Below, one piece after another: positions 1 to 46,319 of a DNA stretch of 47,384 nucleotides. The notes below the pieces were generated by a model. The model saw only the letters and a list, made by a program, of their open reading frames with translations. It did not search any database and was not told the DNA's origin. Every line of letters starts with the position of its first letter. Within the stretch, counting starts at the first letter, position 1. The DNA is taken from assembly GCA_019634385.1 (NCBI GenBank), contig JAHQVK010000008.1:1-47384 (forward strand), in the 5' to 3' direction. The translations under genes were made by a program, and so were the position numbers. Source of the DNA: Myxococcales bacterium. Lineage in GTDB: Bacteria; Myxococcota; Kuafuiibacteriia; Kuafuiibacteriales; Kuafuiibacteriaceae.

Positions 1-139
1 AGGCTTTTCGTGAAACGTTCTGACGACGAGGCGAGCGTACCTGGCGGTACGCGACCGAGGAGAGACTTCTTGTGGTCAGGATGTTTCACGGAAAGACCGG
101 CCGATAGATGCCTGCAGGGCTAGATCAACAGGCTGCTAG
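1..139 (-). repeat. Family 1 palindromic repeat (MITE-like), copy cut by window start
   Basis: This is a partial copy of a repeat seen complete at 45946-46130, here in the opposite orientation. Its reverse complement begins CTAGCAGCCTGTTGATC and matches the 46 kb copy almost base for base, until the window starts and removes about 46 bases of the other arm. It contains the internal inverted pair GTGAAACGTTCTGAC / GTCAGGATGTTTCAC and a small hairpin with stems CGTACC and GGTACG around base 45. It ends in CTAG at 136-139. No ORF inside looks real. Confidence 0.85.
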
Positions 140-149
140 TTCAGCTGAG

Positions 150-264
150 TACAGCAAAGACCACTTGATTTGATTCTGGAAAAATCAACAAGGGGTCGCG
201 CAGCCGCGGCATTGCCCCGAGGAGAAGCTGGAACTTGGGTTCTACTCAAGTTCTTGCTGCTGTA
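150..264. repeat. Family 3 TA-flanked repeat, copy A
   Basis: A 115-base unit that starts TACAGCAAAGACC and ends TTGCTGCTGTA, so its ends are inverted (TACAGCA/TGCTGTA) and flanked by TA on both sides. It shares most of its length with the copy at 4839-4952, including the internal dyad TTGATTC/AATCAA and the stretch AAGGGGTCGCGCAG. It looks like a nonautonomous mobile element of the TA-target (IS630/Tc1) kind. Bases 265-340, up to the next gene end, hold nothing I recognise. Confidence 0.8.
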
Positions 265-340
265 TTATGTACCCTCTTCATCAAAACATTCCACGGACAG
301 CCTTCGGAAACTATGGCCACTCAGCTCAATCAACTGGCGG

Positions 341-4739: not shown

Positions 4740-4838
4740 AGTTCTAGACTATCGACCCATATGAGAGCCAATGTCGACGATATTATTGTCTAGCACTGAA
4801 GATGCGGATCATCCCTATCCAATTTACACGGTGTTATA

Positions 4839-4952
4839 TACAGCGGAGACCACTTGCATTGATTCTGTTAGAATCAACAAGGGGTCGCGCAGCGGGGCAT
4901 AGCCACGCGTAGAAGCAGGATCTTGGGTTCTAGCCAAGCTCTTGCTGCTGTA
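4839..4952. repeat. Family 3 TA-flanked repeat, copy C
   Basis: A second long copy of the TACAGC...GCTGTA repeat, 114 bases, in the same orientation as the copy at 150-264. Shared blocks are GAGACCACTTG, the dyad TTGATTCTG/AGAATCAA, CAAGGGGTCGCGCAGC, TCTTGGGTTCTA and CTTGCTGCTGTA. The left end lies in TATATACAGC and the right end in GCTGTATACG, so TA borders both ends. The two copies differ by scattered substitutions, so neither insertion looks recent. Confidence 0.8.
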
Positions 4953-4960
4953 TACGTAAC

Positions 4961-23984: not shown

Positions 23985-24164
23985 CTAGGGCGTTCCTTCA
24001 GACGCCGGACCGCGTTCTGACTTGTTTCCCACATCTGTGAGGGGTCGGTGGCTTCGCCACCCTTGCCGGCCCCTCGGCCCGGTACCCTCCCCCTCCGGGC
24101 CGCCTCCTCACAAACACGGGATACGGCATCATCTCCGAAGCCGGAGTGTAAAGACACGCCTTAG
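23985..24164. repeat. Family 2 palindromic repeat, copy 2a
   Basis: A 180-base unit from CTAGGGCGTTCC to GACACGCCTTAG. It shares most of its length with the copy at 46127-46319 (blocks GACCGCGTTCT, CTTGTTTCCCA, CGGTGGCTTCG, CCCCTCGG, CCGGTAC, AAGCCGGAG or its variant, and GTAAAGA). The ends are inverted, and the interior holds hairpins GGTGGC-TTC-GCCACC and GGCCCGG/CCGGGCC. It is followed after about 70 bases by a family 1 copy. It is probably a nonautonomous mobile element. Confidence 0.85.
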
Positions 24165-24236: not shown

Positions 24237-24347
24237 CTAGCAGCCTGTTGATCTAGCCCTGCAGGCATCTATCGGCCGTTCTTTTCGTGAAACATCCTGA
24301 CCACGCGGCCCATAGATGCGTGCTGGGCTAGATCAACAGGCTGCTAG
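24237..24347. repeat. Family 1 palindromic repeat, short copy 1b
   Basis: 111 bases, CTAGCAGCCTGTTGATC to GATCAACAGGCTGCTAG, with near-perfect inverted ends of about 26 bases (including CTAGCCCTGC / GCTGGGCTAG). It keeps the GTGAAACATCCTGACCAC left arm but lacks the loop and right inner arm of the 185-base form, so it is an internal-deletion derivative. Its right border CTAG at 24344-24347 contains the stop codon of the PilZ gene. Confidence 0.9.
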
Positions 24348-24775
24348 GGCAGCATCATCTGACCAGCAAAACTCTCTGAAGTTGCACGAATAGCAAGAAG
24401 AGACTCCTCCACGTACCGAAATATCGGAAGAAAGACCAGTTCATCAGCCTCTAGAAAACAAGCACCAGCTCGCTGATTCCCCTCCGTACTTTGAGTCACG
24501 TGCCTCAACTCGGCACTGACCAGATATTCTTCCCAGCCGTCTGGTAGTTGAAAACGTACCAAGATTCGATCTCCCACTGCCAACGGGGGACAGAATCTAT
24601 CGACCTTAAAACCCACCCCACCCATAGATATATCTCCATGCCCTACAGGAAGCTCCATCCCAACGAGCTGTGAGGACCGATCACGTGCCGAATCACAGGC
24701 AGCTTTTGTCACTTCTACGGACAAGCGTGCGAGCCCAACTCGGGCACCGTTTCGCAATTCACGGTGATGACGCAT
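24344..24775 (-). CDS. PilZ-domain protein
   Basis: 143 residues. The N-terminus MRHHRELRNGARVGLARLSV supplies the basic RxxxR-type region of PilZ, and HGDISMGGVGFKV the D-x-S-x-x-G loop, so both c-di-GMP contact blocks are recognisable. Beta strands follow (ILVRFQLPDGWEEYLVSAEL) and a C-terminal helix. It is probably a c-di-GMP receptor in the cytosol. The ATG at 24775 fits the PilZ opening better than the frame's first ATG at 24835. Its TAG stop is formed by the border of the repeat at 24237-24347. Confidence 0.85.
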   Translation of the reverse strand: MRHHRELRNGARVGLARLSVEVTKAACDSARDRSSQLVGMELPVGHGDISMGGVGFKVDRFCPPLAVGDRILVRFQLPDGWEEYLVSAELRHVTQSTEGNQRAGACFLEADELVFLPIFRYVEESLLAIRATSESFAGQMMLP

Positions 24776-24969
24776 GTTAACTTCTCTTAAGCACCAAAAA
24801 CGCACATCCCAATGAATTGTGCATTCCCAACGCACTAAGCATAGCCATCACCTTCATCACACTCCAGACAGAATTGTAGATAATCATGACTTATGGCACA
24901 AAATGCAAACAAACCATATCAAACATCTCAGAAAATAAAAACATTGAATCACAAACGATGAACACCCTC

Positions 24970-38910: not shown

Positions 38911-39699
38911 ATGGGGAAGATCGTGGCCTACCTCGGTCCACCAACTTTCGTGTCCCAAGTTGTGGAGGGCGGTGCAAATAGCCTTGCCCATCAACAAGTA
39001 ACAGACTCTTCCTCGGGTTACGGATTGGGTTGGTATCCCACCTCGCCCAACACTATCTACCCTAACGACATCAGCAGCCCAGTGCGTATTTTTAGCTCAT
39101 ATGCAGTTAAGGCGGACCTTCAACCCCTGGAGGTACCTAGAGCCTACCAAAGTCATTGTATTCTTGCTACGTCCTGGAACTGCGACACTTACAATCGGAA
39201 TGCAGCTAGTCATCAACCGCTTCGCAGTGACTCCATTCTCCTCGCTATGGAAGCCCAAATTGAAGGGTTTCAGGACGTGTTTCTGCGTCCACTCACCAAA
39301 GAATTATCCGATGAGGCCTTCGGCTGGATGCAAGGACAAAGTCCGTCAGAGCTCTGCCTAGCCCTTCTTCATGATTCCCTAGAAAGTAACGACCCCGATG
39401 CTATGGCCTCCGCTCTTGAATCGGTGATCACTCGGATTCAAACGATCGCAACCACACACGACCTTCCTACATCACTGGCCGTTGTTGTCACCGACGGCAG
39501 AGCACTTATTGCGGTGAGAACCGCAACCCACGGTGCACCTCCTCCGCTGTACACAACCTTAGCTGATGACTATTCTCCGATCCCCTCTTCAGGACGGGTA
39601 GTCGCTTCTGAACCTACTTACCCCGGCGCTTGGCAGGCCATAGATGCTCATGCTCTCACTATTTTCGTTGTAGAGCCCACCGATGAAAGTAGCCTGTAG
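38911..39699 (+). CDS. EgtC-like class II glutamine amidotransferase fold, catalytic Cys lost
   Basis: 262 residues. The opening MGKIVAYLGPP aligns with MCRHLAYLGPP-type EgtC (gamma-glutamyl hercynylcysteine sulfoxide hydrolase) and related Ntn amidohydrolases, and SGYGLGWYP continues the match. In the family Cys2 is the nucleophile; here codon 2 is GGG (Gly), and a stop just upstream in frame rules out a longer start. The usual R-x-A-T...N-x-H-P-F block reads TSWNCDTYNRNAASHQP, and the H-N-G motif reads MEAQI. It should therefore not hydrolyse glutamine or ergothioneine precursors. A structural or binding role is inferred. No egtB or egtD is in the window. Its TAG stop sits on the left border of the repeat at 39696-39784. 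Confidence 0.8.
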   Translation: MGKIVAYLGPPTFVSQVVEGGANSLAHQQVTDSSSGYGLGWYPTSPNTIYPNDISSPVRIFSSYAVKADLQPLEVPRAYQSHCILATSWNCDTYNRNAASHQPLRSDSILLAMEAQIEGFQDVFLRPLTKELSDEAFGWMQGQSPSELCLALLHDSLESNDPDAMASALESVITRIQTIATTHDLPTSLAVVVTDGRALIAVRTATHGAPPPLYTTLADDYSPIPSSGRVVASEPTYPGAWQAIDAHALTIFVVEPTDESSL

Positions 39700-39784
39700 G
39701 GCATGTCTTTAACCTCCGAACCCTCACACACCCGAGATAGGGCGTCAGCTCCACCGCCGGAGGGTAAAGACACGCCCTGGCTAG
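39696..39784. repeat. Family 2 palindromic repeat, short copy 2b between convergent genes
   Basis: An 88-base copy from TAGGGCATGTCTTTAACC to GGTAAAGACACGCCCTGGCTAG. The ends are inverted (GGGC-x-TGTCTTTA / TAAAGACACGCCC) and CCTCCG/CGGAGG pairs inside. It has lost about 100 bases relative to copies at 23985 and 46127. The TAG stop of the EgtC-like gene (39697-39699) and the TAG stop of the FHA gene (39783-39781, minus strand) both lie on its borders. It could fold as a bidirectional terminator-like hairpin. Confidence 0.88.
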
Positions 39785-41343
39785 GGCTGTACTTCCCGCA
39801 GTCGGGGTACTGATAGTATCCGATAGATATTGGTGGGAGGGTTCGTATAAGAGATCGTCTTAAATAACAAGTACGCCTCCGCTGTGCGATCGGGCCACAT
39901 GCTCATCGCCTTCTCGTACATCTGAGGCGTTTGTTGAATAATCTTTTGGATCCCCTTTGTTGCCCCAGTATGACCGGGGTGTACAGTAAGAGCTTTCATA
40001 AAGGATTCATGCGCCCGTGCATGGTCTTGAGCTACTAATGCGACCTGTCCTTGCTGGTACATGCCCTCAACGAGAAAAGACTGTAGATGAATCCGAAGAC
40101 CTTTCTCTTCACCTACTATCAGATAGTTTAACCGCAGCGCTTCGCGTGCCCACTTTTGTAAATTTTGTCCATCACCTCGTTGATACGCCCGCCTCAGGTG
40201 AGTTAATATATCTTCCATACGAGCCAAATACTCAACAAGCCGCTCAGATCCCTGAGGGTGATGAGCTTCTACCCACGACTTCGCCGCCAGGACCTCAGTT
40301 CGTTTGTACATTTTTAGCGGCTGGCCGCTAAGAGAAGGAAGCGCGAGTTGATCAATTGCAGCAGAAGGTTCGTGGGTATCAAACCAACAGTGCCTACGAA
40401 AGGCATCGTCCGCATATACACTTTCTGGTGGGATGGACCGTAATAGGCGCCTAGCCTCAACCCTCGCCCCGTCAGCAAACAATCGTTCGGCTCTCCGAAG
40501 CCGGTCCCAGTTTTTGAGCTCAGCATCTACATAAGCTTGGTAAGCAGAGAGGCGAGGATGGTCCGCCTTCAACTGCACAAGGGTTTGTAGTACTCGCCAG
40601 GCGTCGCCAAAACGCTCTATCTTGACTAATGCAACTGCCTGGAGGAACCGACGGTTGACCTCCCTCGCCCTTCCCTGAACGACCTTCGGTGAACGGGGAT
40701 TGCGACCAAAAAGAAGTAAGAGGCTAACCGTAAGCCCTAGTAATAGGACCACACGCCCTAGGGTGAGCAACAAGTATCGTGGACGAGAACTAAGGATGGA
40801 ACACTCCAGCGCCTTCAGGGGCCAAATACTGGCTTTTGTAGGTACGCCCTTCGGACTATCTATGTCAGCATTCTCCAACCGAATAAATCGGAAGGTTCGC
40901 TCACCGATCTCAAACTCATCACCGGAAGATAGTGGTGTCCTCTGGCGTAGCAACTTGCCATTGAGCCTCGTCCCGTTGTTCGAAGCAAGATCTTCGATGT
41001 TGTAGGTATTGTCTTGATCTAGCTCGATTCGCGCGTGCCTACGTGAAACAGCTATATCCACCAACGGCAAGTTACACCCTGGATCTCGTCCGAGGCATAC
41101 GCTTGATTCTCGGAAGTTCCAACCAACTCCTTGATCTGGTCCTACCACCACAACCAACCGAAAACCCTCATTCGGAGAATGTTTTATGTCTTCCCGCGCC
41201 GCCAAGATCCCAAGAAACTCTCCCTCATCATAATCAGCGGTAGGTTGATACAAACCCACTGACTCGTTCTCCCCATTAGCTACGCCCCGCAAGCGTTCAT
41301 CAAACTCACCACCGGCATCCAAAGGCAACGAAGGTTTGTCCAC
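39781..41343 (-). CDS. FHA-domain, transmembrane, TPR protein
   Basis: 520 residues. An FHA phosphothreonine-binding domain lies at about residues 70-150 (SVCLGRDPGCNLPLVD, VSRRHARIEL, LASNNGTRLNG), all four signature blocks present. A transmembrane helix follows (YLLLTLGRVVLLLGLTVSLLL), then about 300 residues of TPR-like helices (FLQAVALVKIERFGDAWRVL; QVALVAQDHARAHESFMKAL). The FHA side would be cytoplasmic and the TPRs on the other side of the membrane. Such FHA-TM-TPR proteins are frequent in Myxococcota near type VI or kinase systems, but neither is here. The start is a GTG at 41343; the gene follows the metallophosphoesterase by 23 bases. Confidence 0.88.
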   Translation of the reverse strand: MDKPSLPLDAGGEFDERLRGVANGENESVGLYQPTADYDEGEFLGILAAREDIKHSPNEGFRLVVVVGPDQGVGWNFRESSVCLGRDPGCNLPLVDIAVSRRHARIELDQDNTYNIEDLASNNGTRLNGKLLRQRTPLSSGDEFEIGERTFRFIRLENADIDSPKGVPTKASIWPLKALECSILSSRPRYLLLTLGRVVLLLGLTVSLLLLFGRNPRSPKVVQGRAREVNRRFLQAVALVKIERFGDAWRVLQTLVQLKADHPRLSAYQAYVDAELKNWDRLRRAERLFADGARVEARRLLRSIPPESVYADDAFRRHCWFDTHEPSAAIDQLALPSLSGQPLKMYKRTEVLAAKSWVEAHHPQGSERLVEYLARMEDILTHLRRAYQRGDGQNLQKWAREALRLNYLIVGEEKGLRIHLQSFLVEGMYQQGQVALVAQDHARAHESFMKALTVHPGHTGATKGIQKIIQQTPQMYEKAMSMWPDRTAEAYLLFKTISYTNPPTNIYRILSVPRLREVQP

Positions 41344-43608: not shown

Positions 43609-44340
43609 TTGATCGAACTCATTGAGGTCACTAAAACCTATATCGGGCCCAACCAAACAAACATCCGCGCCGTTGATAGTGTCAGTTTGCAGGTGGAAGA
43701 CGGTCAAACTTTGTGCCTCATCGGAACCAGCGGCTCGGGCAAGACAACAGCAATGAAGCTAGTCAATCGGTTGATCGAACCCACTTCGGGCACCATTCGA
43801 GTCAATGGCCGCGACGTCCGAGAACATGACCTCATTCAACTTCGGCGACAGATCGGGTATGTCCTTCAGTTCGGTGGACTTTTCCCCCATCAAACCGTAG
43901 CGGAAAACATTGGTCTATTGTGCCAAATGGATGGATGGACCAAGCAACAAACGCTAGAACGGGTACGGAGCCTACTACACATGGTTAATCTCCCATACGA
44001 GTCATATGGTTCAAGATATCCGGTCGAGCTTTCCGGCGGCCAGCGACAGCGGGTCGGTGTGGCTAGAGCGCTATCCCTCGACCCACAGTATTTGCTGATG
44101 GACGAACCCTTCGGTGCCTTAGACCCGATAACTAGGCATCAACTCCATGACGAATTTCTTGAGATCAAACAAAAGGTTCAAAAAACCACTATCCTCGTGA
44201 CCCACGATATCAAAGAGGCATTCATCCTGGGTGACCTCATCGGTGTCATGGATCAGGGTCGGTTAGTCCAAATAGGTTCAACAGAAGATATTCAGGCCAG
44301 TACAGACCCTTTTATTCAATCCTTGTTACACAATGTATAA
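43609..44340 (+). CDS. Osmoprotectant/glycine betaine ABC transporter ATPase (OpuCA/ProV-like)
   Basis: 243 residues. Walker A GTSGSGKTTAM, Q-loop LQFGGLFPH, signature LSGGQRQRVGVARAL and Walker B YLLMDEPFGALD are all present, and LVTHDIKEAFILGD is the switch histidine. This is the ATPase of a quaternary-amine uptake system. The C-terminal CBS pair present in OpuCA/ProV is absent, as in OsmV-like short forms of this type. The start is a TTG at 43609, with GGAG about 10 bases upstream. It overlaps the next gene by 8 bases. Confidence 0.92.
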   Translation: MIELIEVTKTYIGPNQTNIRAVDSVSLQVEDGQTLCLIGTSGSGKTTAMKLVNRLIEPTSGTIRVNGRDVREHDLIQLRRQIGYVLQFGGLFPHQTVAENIGLLCQMDGWTKQQTLERVRSLLHMVNLPYESYGSRYPVELSGGQRQRVGVARALSLDPQYLLMDEPFGALDPITRHQLHDEFLEIKQKVQKTTILVTHDIKEAFILGDLIGVMDQGRLVQIGSTEDIQASTDPFIQSLLHNV

Positions 44341-45949
44341 CCCACTCATATATATACCATCATACACAGCACGAGCCGTGTGGGTCGGACTACTTAGTAT
44401 ATGCGGTATACACGTTGGGTTGCCAGCGGCCGCACAAGAAATCTCTCGACCGTTGGTCGTCGCTAGCAAAAATTTTACCGAATCTCGTATTTTAGGCGAA
44501 ATTATTGCGCAACATATAGAGCAAAACTCTACTTACAAAGTTGTTCGCAAACATGGATTGGGAGGCACGCTGCTATGCTTTTCTGCTCTGCAGCACGGCG
44601 GTGTTGACATCTATGTCGAGTATACCGGGACTGGTTGGGCCACAATCCTCAAGAATTCTCAAAAAATCACCGACCCGCTTCAAACGTTTTTACTCGTCCA
44701 GCGCCAATTTAGAGAGCAGTACGCAATTGAGTGGCTTGCACCGTTTGGACATAACAACAGCTATGGAATTGCTATGCTTGAGTCAAAAGCAAAAGCAATG
44801 GGCATCCGCAACTTATCAGACCTCGCGAAGCATGCTCCCAACCTCAAATTAGGAGTGAGCCTAGAGTTTCTTCACCGAGCAGATGGATATCCAGGTCTTC
44901 AGCAGTTTTACGGACTTAACTTTGCTCAAGTGCGTGGTATGGAACATAGTCTCGCGTATCCTGCTCTTCAATCCGAAGAGGTTGATGTCACCGATGTCTA
45001 CACAACAGATGGTAATCTCAAACGCTACGCCTTAGTTGCACTTACGGATGATCAGCTCTTCTTCCCGCCATACACAGCGGCACCTATCGCCCGCATCCAA
45101 ACCCTCAGAGAATATCCAAAATTACGAAAACTACTCCAACAACTAGCTTTTCGTTTATCTGAGGAACGGATGCAGACACTCAACTTTGCCGTAGAAGATC
45201 AAGGACTCGACTTTGCGGTTGTGGCCAAACATTTCATCCAAGAAGAAAATCTCATCCCAAGAAACCGGGGAGTTTCTTCTCAAATCACTCCTGAACCAGA
45301 TCCTGCCACCTCAATACTACAGGTGCAGAACGACCAAATTCTCAACCTTATTGTAGAACACCTCACCCTCACCGGCATCGCTGTCGGACTCGCTATCATC
45401 TTTGCACTTCCGTTAGGAATTATTGTCGCCCGGTATAAATCAATCGGTCCGATCGCGCTCGGTATTGCTGGGGTCATTCAGACCATACCTAGTTTGGCCC
45501 TGTTAGCCCTCATGATTCCCATTCCTGGTCTGGGCCTCGGGTACAATGCGGCCATTGCTGCCCTATTTCTTTATGCTATCCTTCCAATTCTTCGGAATAC
45601 TTACACCGGAATAGCAGGAGTAGATGCCCAACTTATCGAGGCTGCACGGGGATTGGGACTGACTGAACGTCAGATACTATGGCACGTCCAGCTTCCTCTT
45701 GCTGTACCCACGATTATGGCCGGCATTCGAACATCAACCGTGATCAGCATCGGAGTCGCAACCCTAGCTGCGTTCATAGGTGCTGGCGGCTTGGGTGAGT
45801 TAATTATTACCGGACTGCAACTCAATGATCACACTCTTGTACTAACCGGGGCAATCCCCGCCGCCCTCCTCGCTCTGCTGGTTGATAGTTCTTTAGGACT
45901 CACGGAGCGTTGGGCTACGCCTCGTGGCCTTTCATCCCCGGCGCCCTAG
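44333..45949 (+). CDS. Osmoprotectant ABC transporter, substrate-binding protein fused to permease
   Basis: 538 residues. A signal-like hydrophobic start is followed at about residues 40-310 by an OpuCC/OsmF-type binding protein (LVVASKNFTESRILGEIIAQ; VDIYVEYTGTGW; EEVDVTDVYTTDG). The C-terminal 210 residues are an ABC permease (LTLTGIAVGLAIIFALPLGI; EAARGLGLTERQILWHVQLP with the EAA loop; TLAAFIGAGGLGELIITG). Natural fusions of binding protein and permease occur in this family, usually permease first; here the order is binding protein then permease. Together with the preceding ATPase it forms a complete importer. Its TAG stop (45947-45949) is created by the border of a family 1 repeat. Confidence 0.93.
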   Translation: MYNPLIYIPSYTARAVWVGLLSICGIHVGLPAAAQEISRPLVVASKNFTESRILGEIIAQHIEQNSTYKVVRKHGLGGTLLCFSALQHGGVDIYVEYTGTGWATILKNSQKITDPLQTFLLVQRQFREQYAIEWLAPFGHNNSYGIAMLESKAKAMGIRNLSDLAKHAPNLKLGVSLEFLHRADGYPGLQQFYGLNFAQVRGMEHSLAYPALQSEEVDVTDVYTTDGNLKRYALVALTDDQLFFPPYTAAPIARIQTLREYPKLRKLLQQLAFRLSEERMQTLNFAVEDQGLDFAVVAKHFIQEENLIPRNRGVSSQITPEPDPATSILQVQNDQILNLIVEHLTLTGIAVGLAIIFALPLGIIVARYKSIGPIALGIAGVIQTIPSLALLALMIPIPGLGLGYNAAIAALFLYAILPILRNTYTGIAGVDAQLIEAARGLGLTERQILWHVQLPLAVPTIMAGIRTSTVISIGVATLAAFIGAGGLGELIITGLQLNDHTLVLTGAIPAALLALLVDSSLGLTERWATPRGLSSPAP

Positions 45950-46130
45950 CAGCCTGTTGATCTAGCCCTGCACACATCTATCGGCCGGTCTTTCCGTTAA
46001 ACGTCCTGACCACTAAAAGTCTCTCCTCGGTCACGTACCGCCAGGTACGCTCGCCTCGTCGTCAGAGCGTTTCACGAAAAGCCTGGCTCGATAGCCAGCT
46101 ACACACATGGCTAAATCAACAGGCTGCTAG
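45946..46130. repeat. Family 1 palindromic repeat, full-length copy 1c
   Basis: 185 bases, CTAGCAGCCTGTTGATC to AAATCAACAGGCTGCTAG. It can fold along its whole length: outer arms GCAGCCTGTTGAT/ATCAACAGGCTGC, inner arms GTTAAACGTCCTGAC / GTCAGAGCGTTTCAC, and an apical hairpin CGTACC-GCCA-GGTACG-type (CGTACCGCCAGGTACG). It carries no ORF. The TA inside each terminal CTAG would be the duplicated target if the inserted unit is GCAGCC...GGCTGC. Its left border supplies the ABC gene's stop codon. Confidence 0.92.
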
Positions 46131-46319
46131 GGCCTGTCTTTGACGTCTAGACCGCGTTCTAACTTGTTTCCCATAATGTATGAGGACTCGGTGGCTTCGC
46201 ACCCTTGCGGGCCCCTCGGACCGGTACATCCAGTACCCTCCCTCCGGGTCAGAACCTTCACACACACTGGATATGGCGTCAGCTCCGCAGCCGGAGGGTA
46301 AAGATACGCCCTGGTGTAG
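46127..46319. repeat. Family 2 palindromic repeat, long copy 2c, abutting family 1
   Basis: 193 bases from CTAGGGCCTGTCTTTGAC to GTAAAGATACGCCCTGGTGTAG. It shares its left CTAG with the right border of the family 1 copy, so one element inserted exactly into the end of the other. Blocks shared with the copy at 23985 include GACCGCGTTCT, CTTGTTTCCCA, CGGTGGCTTCG and GTAAAGA. The right border lies 3 bases from the stop codon of the minus-strand glycosyltransferase. Confidence 0.88.

What the first reader, a model, noticed from the sequence alone, without database searches (positions are those of the whole stretch)
24237..24347. Element borders rebuild TAG stop codons of host genes
Four host stop codons lie exactly on borders of families 1 and 2: the PilZ gene (24344-24346), the ABC fusion (45947-45949), the EgtC-like gene (39697-39699) and the FHA gene (39781-39783). 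If insertion targets the TA of CTAG and the element starts with G, then duplicated TA plus G always restores TAG in frame. Insertion at a TAG stop codon is thus neutral, which may explain the enrichment at gene ends.
Basis: partly seen in the sequence, partly recalled or inferred. Interest (0 to 1): 0.75.

Follow-up and report, generated by a model that had tools for sequence, protein, structure and literature searches.

The report
Small transposons landing in stop codons
Two families of tiny, very abundant transposons in this bacterium insert at YTAR or TA sites, which include many TAG/TAA stop codons, and their target duplication leaves the stop codon working, so such insertions are harmless and survive about as often as other insertions outside genes.

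Summary
The coincidence is real, but its mechanism differs from the proposal and the claimed enrichment is weak. Three of the four named stops sit exactly on a border; the FHA stop lies 3 nt outside one.

Both families are high-copy MITEs (715 and 937 ends genome-wide).

Family 1 duplicates a 4-bp target, YTAR (CTAG most often). The G belongs to the target, not the element, so any TAG or TAA stop is simply kept: 11 TAG and 4 TAA cases.

It keeps TAG, turns TAA into TAG (5 cases) and can turn a Tyr codon into TAG (2 cases).

In-frame stops spike at the border (19 family-1 and 22 family-2 borders, against 0-4 at each nearby offset). But stops are about 7% of all non-coding YTAR sites. Against YTAR sites just downstream of genes the odds ratio is 1.1-1.6, not significant once decayed borders are counted. 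Stop sites are occupied like intergenic sites and about 160 times more than coding sites. This supports neutrality and gives little support to targeting. Close precedents exist: pneumococcal BOX elements that encode gene stops, and the 4-bp CTAG/YTAA duplication of MITEPsy1.

The parts
24241..24343 (.). Family 1 MITE, internally shortened copy (103 bp; usual length 173), CAGCCTGTTGAT...ATCAACAGGCTG, near-perfect hairpin
   Evidence: RNA fold -79.4 kcal/mol, z -12.4
24237..24240 (.). Left 4-bp target duplication CTAG of the family 1 copy
24344..24347 (.). Right 4-bp target duplication CTAG; its CTA (24344-24346) is the TAG stop of the minus-strand PilZ gene
24344..24835 (-). PilZ-domain gene whose stop lies in the duplication
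   Evidence: Pfam PF07238, E 2.3e-07; ORF
45950..46126 (.). Family 1 MITE, full-length copy, flanked by CTAG 45946-45949 and CTAG 46127-46130
44333..45949 (+). ABC transporter fusion (OpuAC + BPD_transp_1); TAG stop 45947-45949 inside the left CTAG
   Evidence: Pfam; four full-length relatives' proteins (L227-L230) end within about 7 residues of this position, a fifth (L231) about 14 residues further on
46130..46311 (.). Family 2 MITE inserted in the TA of the family 1 copy's right CTAG (nested/adjacent)
39699..39777 (.). Family 2 MITE, shortened copy (79 bp), GGGCATGTCTTTA...TAAAGACACGCCC; left duplication TA (39697-39698), right TG (probably TA mutated)
38911..39699 (+).
39781..41343 (-). 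FHA-domain gene; TAG stop (39781-39783) is 3 nt outside the family 2 border, not on it
   Evidence: Pfam PF00498; sequence
72..135 (.). Part of a family 1 copy cut by the contig start, CTAG at 136-139
23987..24160 (.). Family 2 copy, diverged (approximate limits), CTAGGGCGT...ACGCCTTAG

Best explanation
Families 1 and 2 are two unrelated, very abundant MITEs with strict target choice. Family 1 is inserted at YTAR and duplicates all four bases, like IS5-group elements. Family 2 is inserted at TA (mostly inside YTAR) and duplicates TA; it is a derivative of an IS5-family (IS5_3/IS427-like) element whose degraded transposase copies remain in the genome. YTAR reads the same on both strands and contains TAG/TAA, so a stop codon preceded by a pyrimidine is a target on either strand. 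After insertion the upstream gene keeps its frame up to the end of the duplication: family 1 leaves the TAG or TAA intact, family 2 writes TA+G = TAG. Such insertions do not change the protein and survive, while insertions in coding sequence are removed by selection. Shown: duplication lengths, target letters, intact or edited stops, near-absence in coding sequence. Inferred: selection as the filter, and which transposase moved each family.
For: 4-bp duplication in family 1 (60 of 107 identical against 31.6 expected) and TA only in family 2. Before/after stops for 31 border cases: family 1 TAG to TAG 11, TAA to TAA 4; family 2 TAG to TAG 7, TAA to TAG 5, TAC to TAG 2; 2 unclear, one in each family. 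One family 2 copy (L143) sits in a TTAA shared by the stops of two convergent genes, and both now end in TAG. Occupancy per YTAR site: stop 5.2%, intergenic 2.6%, coding 0.03%. ABC-fusion homologues end near the same place in relatives that lack the element. The same family 1 ends occur in a dolphin-mouth MAG, where 7 of 32 borders sit exactly on stops, including dnaE. IS5_3-type transposase remnant with an 837-bp element, ends GGGCCTTTCGTCA/GGGCCTGTCTTCA and flanking TA.
Against: About 12-15 family 1 copies have YTAG/CTAR flank pairs (TTAG...CTAG, CTAG...CTAA) that fit a TA duplication better, so family 1 may not always duplicate four bases. No transposase with family 1 ends was found. Stop-site occupancy is twice intergenic occupancy in the simplest count (P=0.01), so a small true preference is possible.
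Confidence: 0.85

Rival explanations
1. The elements actively prefer stop codons or gene 3-prime ends (e.g. through transcription-linked DNA structure or a host factor), beyond their YTAR need.
For: Most nulls lean above 1: 35 stop borders against 23.6 expected; family 1 per-interval 11 against 7.25, P=0.03; dolphin-mouth MAG 7 of 31 non-coding borders against about 10% per border, P=0.03.
Against: The effect shrinks to odds ratio 1.12-1.31 (not significant) when decayed borders are counted, because a stop under selection keeps its TAR while other borders decay. Family 2 per-interval: 5 against 7.34. No excess in convergent or tandem gaps.
Confidence: 0.12
2. The element supplies a new, earlier stop: genes are truncated at an in-frame TAN by the G end of the element.
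For: Two family 2 cases where the codon before insertion was TAC and the frame would run on 7 or 28 residues.
Against: Not possible for family 1 with a 4-bp duplication, which copies the host's own codon; 12 of 14 resolvable family 2 cases already had TAG or TAA. ABC-fusion homologues end near the same place.
Confidence: 0.05
3. The elements are kept at gene ends because they work as transcription terminators or mRNA 3-prime stabilisers.
For: The 24237-24347 copy forms a 111-nt near-perfect hairpin (-79.4 kcal/mol, z -12.4) directly after the PilZ stop.
Against: Any MITE with long inverted ends folds this way; insertions are as frequent in divergent gaps, which have no gene 3-prime end, as elsewhere.
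Confidence: 0.1

Closest known systems
MITEPsy1 of Pseudomonas syringae (IS5-related MITE; PMC3189936)
   Same: About 100-nt non-autonomous element, 18-nt inverted ends, 4-nt duplication of CTAG or YTAA: the same target rule as family 1
   Different: Different inverted-repeat sequence; few copies (6 in strain 1448A); stop-codon use not discussed in the passages read
BOX elements of Streptococcus pneumoniae (PMC3049150)
   Same: 36 genes end in the repeat, which encodes the stop codon, without strong evidence of truncation against orthologues
   Different: Different repeat structure and host; there the stop lies in the repeat, here wholly in the duplication (family 1) or shared (family 2)
IS427 group of the IS5 family (PMC3281130)
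   Same: Elements of about 832-865 bp, mostly with 2-bp duplications; the family 2 relative here is 837 bp with TA duplication and an IS5-family transposase remnant
   Different: Family 2 itself is about 180 bp and codes for nothing
QMITE1/QMITE2 of Coxiella burnetii (PMC5896051)
   Same: Insertions in functional genes lie at their 3-prime ends, reason stated as unknown
   Different: Their borders overlap the last 1-50 bp of the gene; not an exact stop-codon target

Membership tests
MITE (non-autonomous inverted-repeat element) | Short, no coding capacity, terminal inverted repeats, target duplication, many copies | tested here: met
   173 and about 180 bp, 715 and 937 ends, 4-bp and TA duplications
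IS5 family, IS5-type 4-bp duplication (family 1) | 4-bp duplication of CTAR/YTAA type | tested here: met
   YTAR, 60 of 107 identical against 31.6; compare IS5 C(A/T)A(G/A) in PMC11677980 and MITEPsy1 in PMC3189936
IS5 family, IS5-type 4-bp duplication (family 1) | Inverted repeats shared with an autonomous IS5 element | tested here: not met
   No DDE_Tnp_1 or DDE_5 locus found in the genome is bounded by family 1 ends, so family 1 is not filed as an IS5 member, only as working like one
IS5 family, IS427-like (family 2) | Ends like those of a resident IS5-family transposase element | tested here: met
   L214 837-bp element with PF01609 match, GGGCCTGTCTTCA end and TA on both sides; L212 transposase matches NF033580 transpos_IS5_3 at 132 bits (cut-off 110) and has the same kind of right end
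IS5 family, IS427-like (family 2) | 2-bp duplication | tested here: met
   TA; outer letters independent
IS630/Tc1-mariner | TA duplication and an IS630-type (DDE_3) transposase with matching ends | tested here: not met
   TA duplication fits, but the intact DDE_3 gene (L207) has no family 1 or 2 ends around it
IS701 | 4-bp duplication and a DDE_5 transposase with matching ends | tested here: not met
   One degraded DDE_5 match (L278); no pair of family 1 ends bounds it; IS701 end consensus ---YACT differs

The most novel reading that the evidence does not exclude
A TA-duplicating element with a G end acts as a one-way stop-codon editor: wherever it enters a TAA stop (or an in-frame TAY codon) it leaves a TAG, and together with a YTAR-duplicating family it has used stop codons as a regular safe harbour, slightly preferred over other non-coding DNA.
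Probability: 0.2. Interest if true: 0.5.

Novelty: new member of a known kind. Interest (0 to 1): 0.33.

Why it matters
It gives a simple, testable rule: any transposon whose duplicated target contains TAR can enter a stop codon on either strand without harm, and one that duplicates only TA and starts with G converts TAA to TAG. This explains part of the often noted presence of small repeats exactly at gene 3-prime ends without special targeting or function, and is a caution when such repeats are read as terminators or as truncating insertions.

Tried and rejected
Empty sites in relatives: no same-genus genome is held, and no family 1 match was found in the 28 relatives searched or in the other 194 genomes of the phylum search, so protein ends were compared instead. 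IS630 (DDE_3), IS701 (DDE_5) and IS5 (DDE_Tnp_1) transposases were tested as source of family 1: none is bounded by its ends. A site-level null over all non-coding YTAR sites suggested about twofold enrichment; stricter local nulls reduced it. The border match at window 340 is a weak 4-mismatch hit and was dropped by the stricter pattern. A second protein query was typed by hand from L214 and is not used as evidence.

Full report
The window is contig C56 of a 257-contig draft genome of 5.39 Mb. Two short inverted-repeat families fill its intergenic DNA. The family 1 end pattern (CTAGCAGCCTGTTGATYTAGCC, up to 3 mismatches) occurs 715 times in the genome, and the reversed control pattern never. 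The family 2 end (TAGGGCRTGTCTTTR, up to 2 mismatches) occurs 937 times, and the control 27 times. Both are MITE-sized: family 1 is mostly 173 bp, family 2 about 180 bp.

The four named stops. PilZ, the ABC fusion and the EgtC-like gene end exactly at a border; the FHA gene ends 3 nt outside one (GCCC-TGG-CTAG). Pfam supports PilZ, OpuAC+BPD_transp_1 and FHA; the EgtC-like gene has no Pfam match.

What is duplicated. To read the bases around the border without bias, ends were anchored on their inner part. In family 1 the four flanking bases are Y-T-A-R with the last base variable (G 77%, A 22%), so G is not part of the element. Left and right tetranucleotides agree in 60 of 107 copies, against 31.6 expected for independent sides, and longer matches do not occur; CTAA/CTAA and TTAA/TTAA pairs show that the base next to the element comes from the target. 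A minority (about 12-15) shows TTAG...CTAG or CTAG...CTAA, which fits a TA duplication better and is unexplained.

What happens to stops. Rebuilding the site before insertion for 31 border cases gave: family 1, TAG kept 11, TAA kept 4, one unclear; family 2, TAG kept 7, TAA changed to TAG 5, Tyr TAC changed to TAG 2, one unclear. One family 2 copy (L143) lies in a TTAA in which two convergent genes both end; both now end in TAG. Homologues of the ABC fusion in five relatives, about 41-51% identical, end near the same place: four within about 7 residues, one about 14 residues further on; no family 1 element was found in these genomes.

Is it more than expected? I wrote a hexamer-based gene caller, removed 229 complete elements in silico from 2.0 Mb, and called genes on the restored sequence. 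Positionally the spike is unmistakable: 19 and 22 in-frame stops exactly at the border, 0-4 at each offset around it. But stop codons are themselves dense YTAR sites: 346 of about 5,000 non-coding YTAR sites. Against all non-coding YTAR sites family 1 has 11 against 4.6 expected and family 2 has 7 against 5.0. Within the same intergenic gap it is 11 against 7.25 (P=0.03) and 5 against 7.34. Against YTAR sites 1-300 bp downstream of a gene it is 17 against 11.7 and 18 against 11.9: odds ratio 1.59, P=0.03 together. That count keeps only intact YTAR borders, which favours stops, because a stop is held by selection while other borders decay. With decayed borders included the ratio is 1.31 (P=0.14) or 1.12 (P=0.55). 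By interval type the insertions follow the sites: convergent 14/10.7, tandem 22/30.2, divergent 18/13.1 for family 1, and 9/11.0, 34/31.3, 13/13.6 for family 2 (observed/expected). A strong preference for gene ends is not seen.

Neutrality is supported directly. YTAR sites inside genes are occupied at 0.03% (4 of about 12,250), intergenic ones at 2.6%, stop-codon ones at 5.2%. This assumes that the genes called are real and that elements in coding sequence were lost rather than never inserted; the second point is inference.

Other genomes. The family 1 end is absent from the other 194 genomes of the phylum that were searched but occurs in a dolphin-mouth MAG, DOLZORAL124_67_5.8. There 32 borders were examined: 7 sit exactly on stops, among them dnaE and a 581-residue protein. 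In that GC-rich genome 16 of 79 non-coding YTAR sites are stops, so about 10% per border is expected; 7 of 31 non-coding borders gives P=0.03 in a small sample.

Source elements. The genome keeps a few degraded IS5-family transposase genes. One (L214) lies in an 837-bp element with ends GGGCCTTTCGTCA/GGGCCTGTCTTCA and TA on both sides; another (L212) matches NCBIfam transpos_IS5_3 above its cut-off and has the end GGGCTTGTCTTCG followed by TA. These ends resemble family 2 (GGGCRTGTCTTTA), and the length and 2-bp duplication fit the IS427 group (PMC3281130). No source was found for family 1; its 4-bp rule is that of IS5 (PMC11677980) and of MITEPsy1 (PMC3189936).

Known precedents. In the pneumococcus 36 genes end inside BOX elements, which encode the stop, without strong sign of truncation (PMC3049150). 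Coxiella QMITEs in functional genes lie at 3-prime ends for a reason stated as unknown (PMC5896051). So the phenomenon is a clear, quantified member of a known kind; the TAA-to-TAG conversion by family 2 is the least familiar part.

Limits: 37% of the genome analysed, home-made gene calls, no sister strain, no experiment.

Noticed in passing
window 147-266, 1361-1415, 4836-4954: A third short repeat family, TACAGCAAAGACCACTTG...CAAGTTCTTGCTGCTGTA, three places in the window, also with inverted ends.
   Followed up: no
window 46127-46314 and many loci: Family 2 copies are sometimes inserted in the CTAG duplication of a family 1 copy (nested or adjacent pairs): the elements create their own targets. 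108 borders in 2 Mb abut another element.
   Followed up: partly
contig starts, e.g. window 1-139: Many contigs of the draft begin or end inside a family 1 copy, so the repeats break the assembly and the copy number from contigs is a lower bound.
   Followed up: no
genome-wide (1.73 Mb sample): TAG is used for about a third of stops (366 of 1062), which seems high for a bacterium; family 2 conversions explain only a small part.
   Followed up: no
L247 4389-7911, L246 126-1872: A dolphin-mouth MAG (DOLZORAL124_67_5.8, about 65% GC) shares the family 1 ends but with a different interior, which suggests transfer of, or a common, transposase.
   Followed up: partly
L143 1944-2120: One family 2 insertion in a TTAA shared by the stop codons of two convergent genes; both stops are now TAG.
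   Followed up: yes
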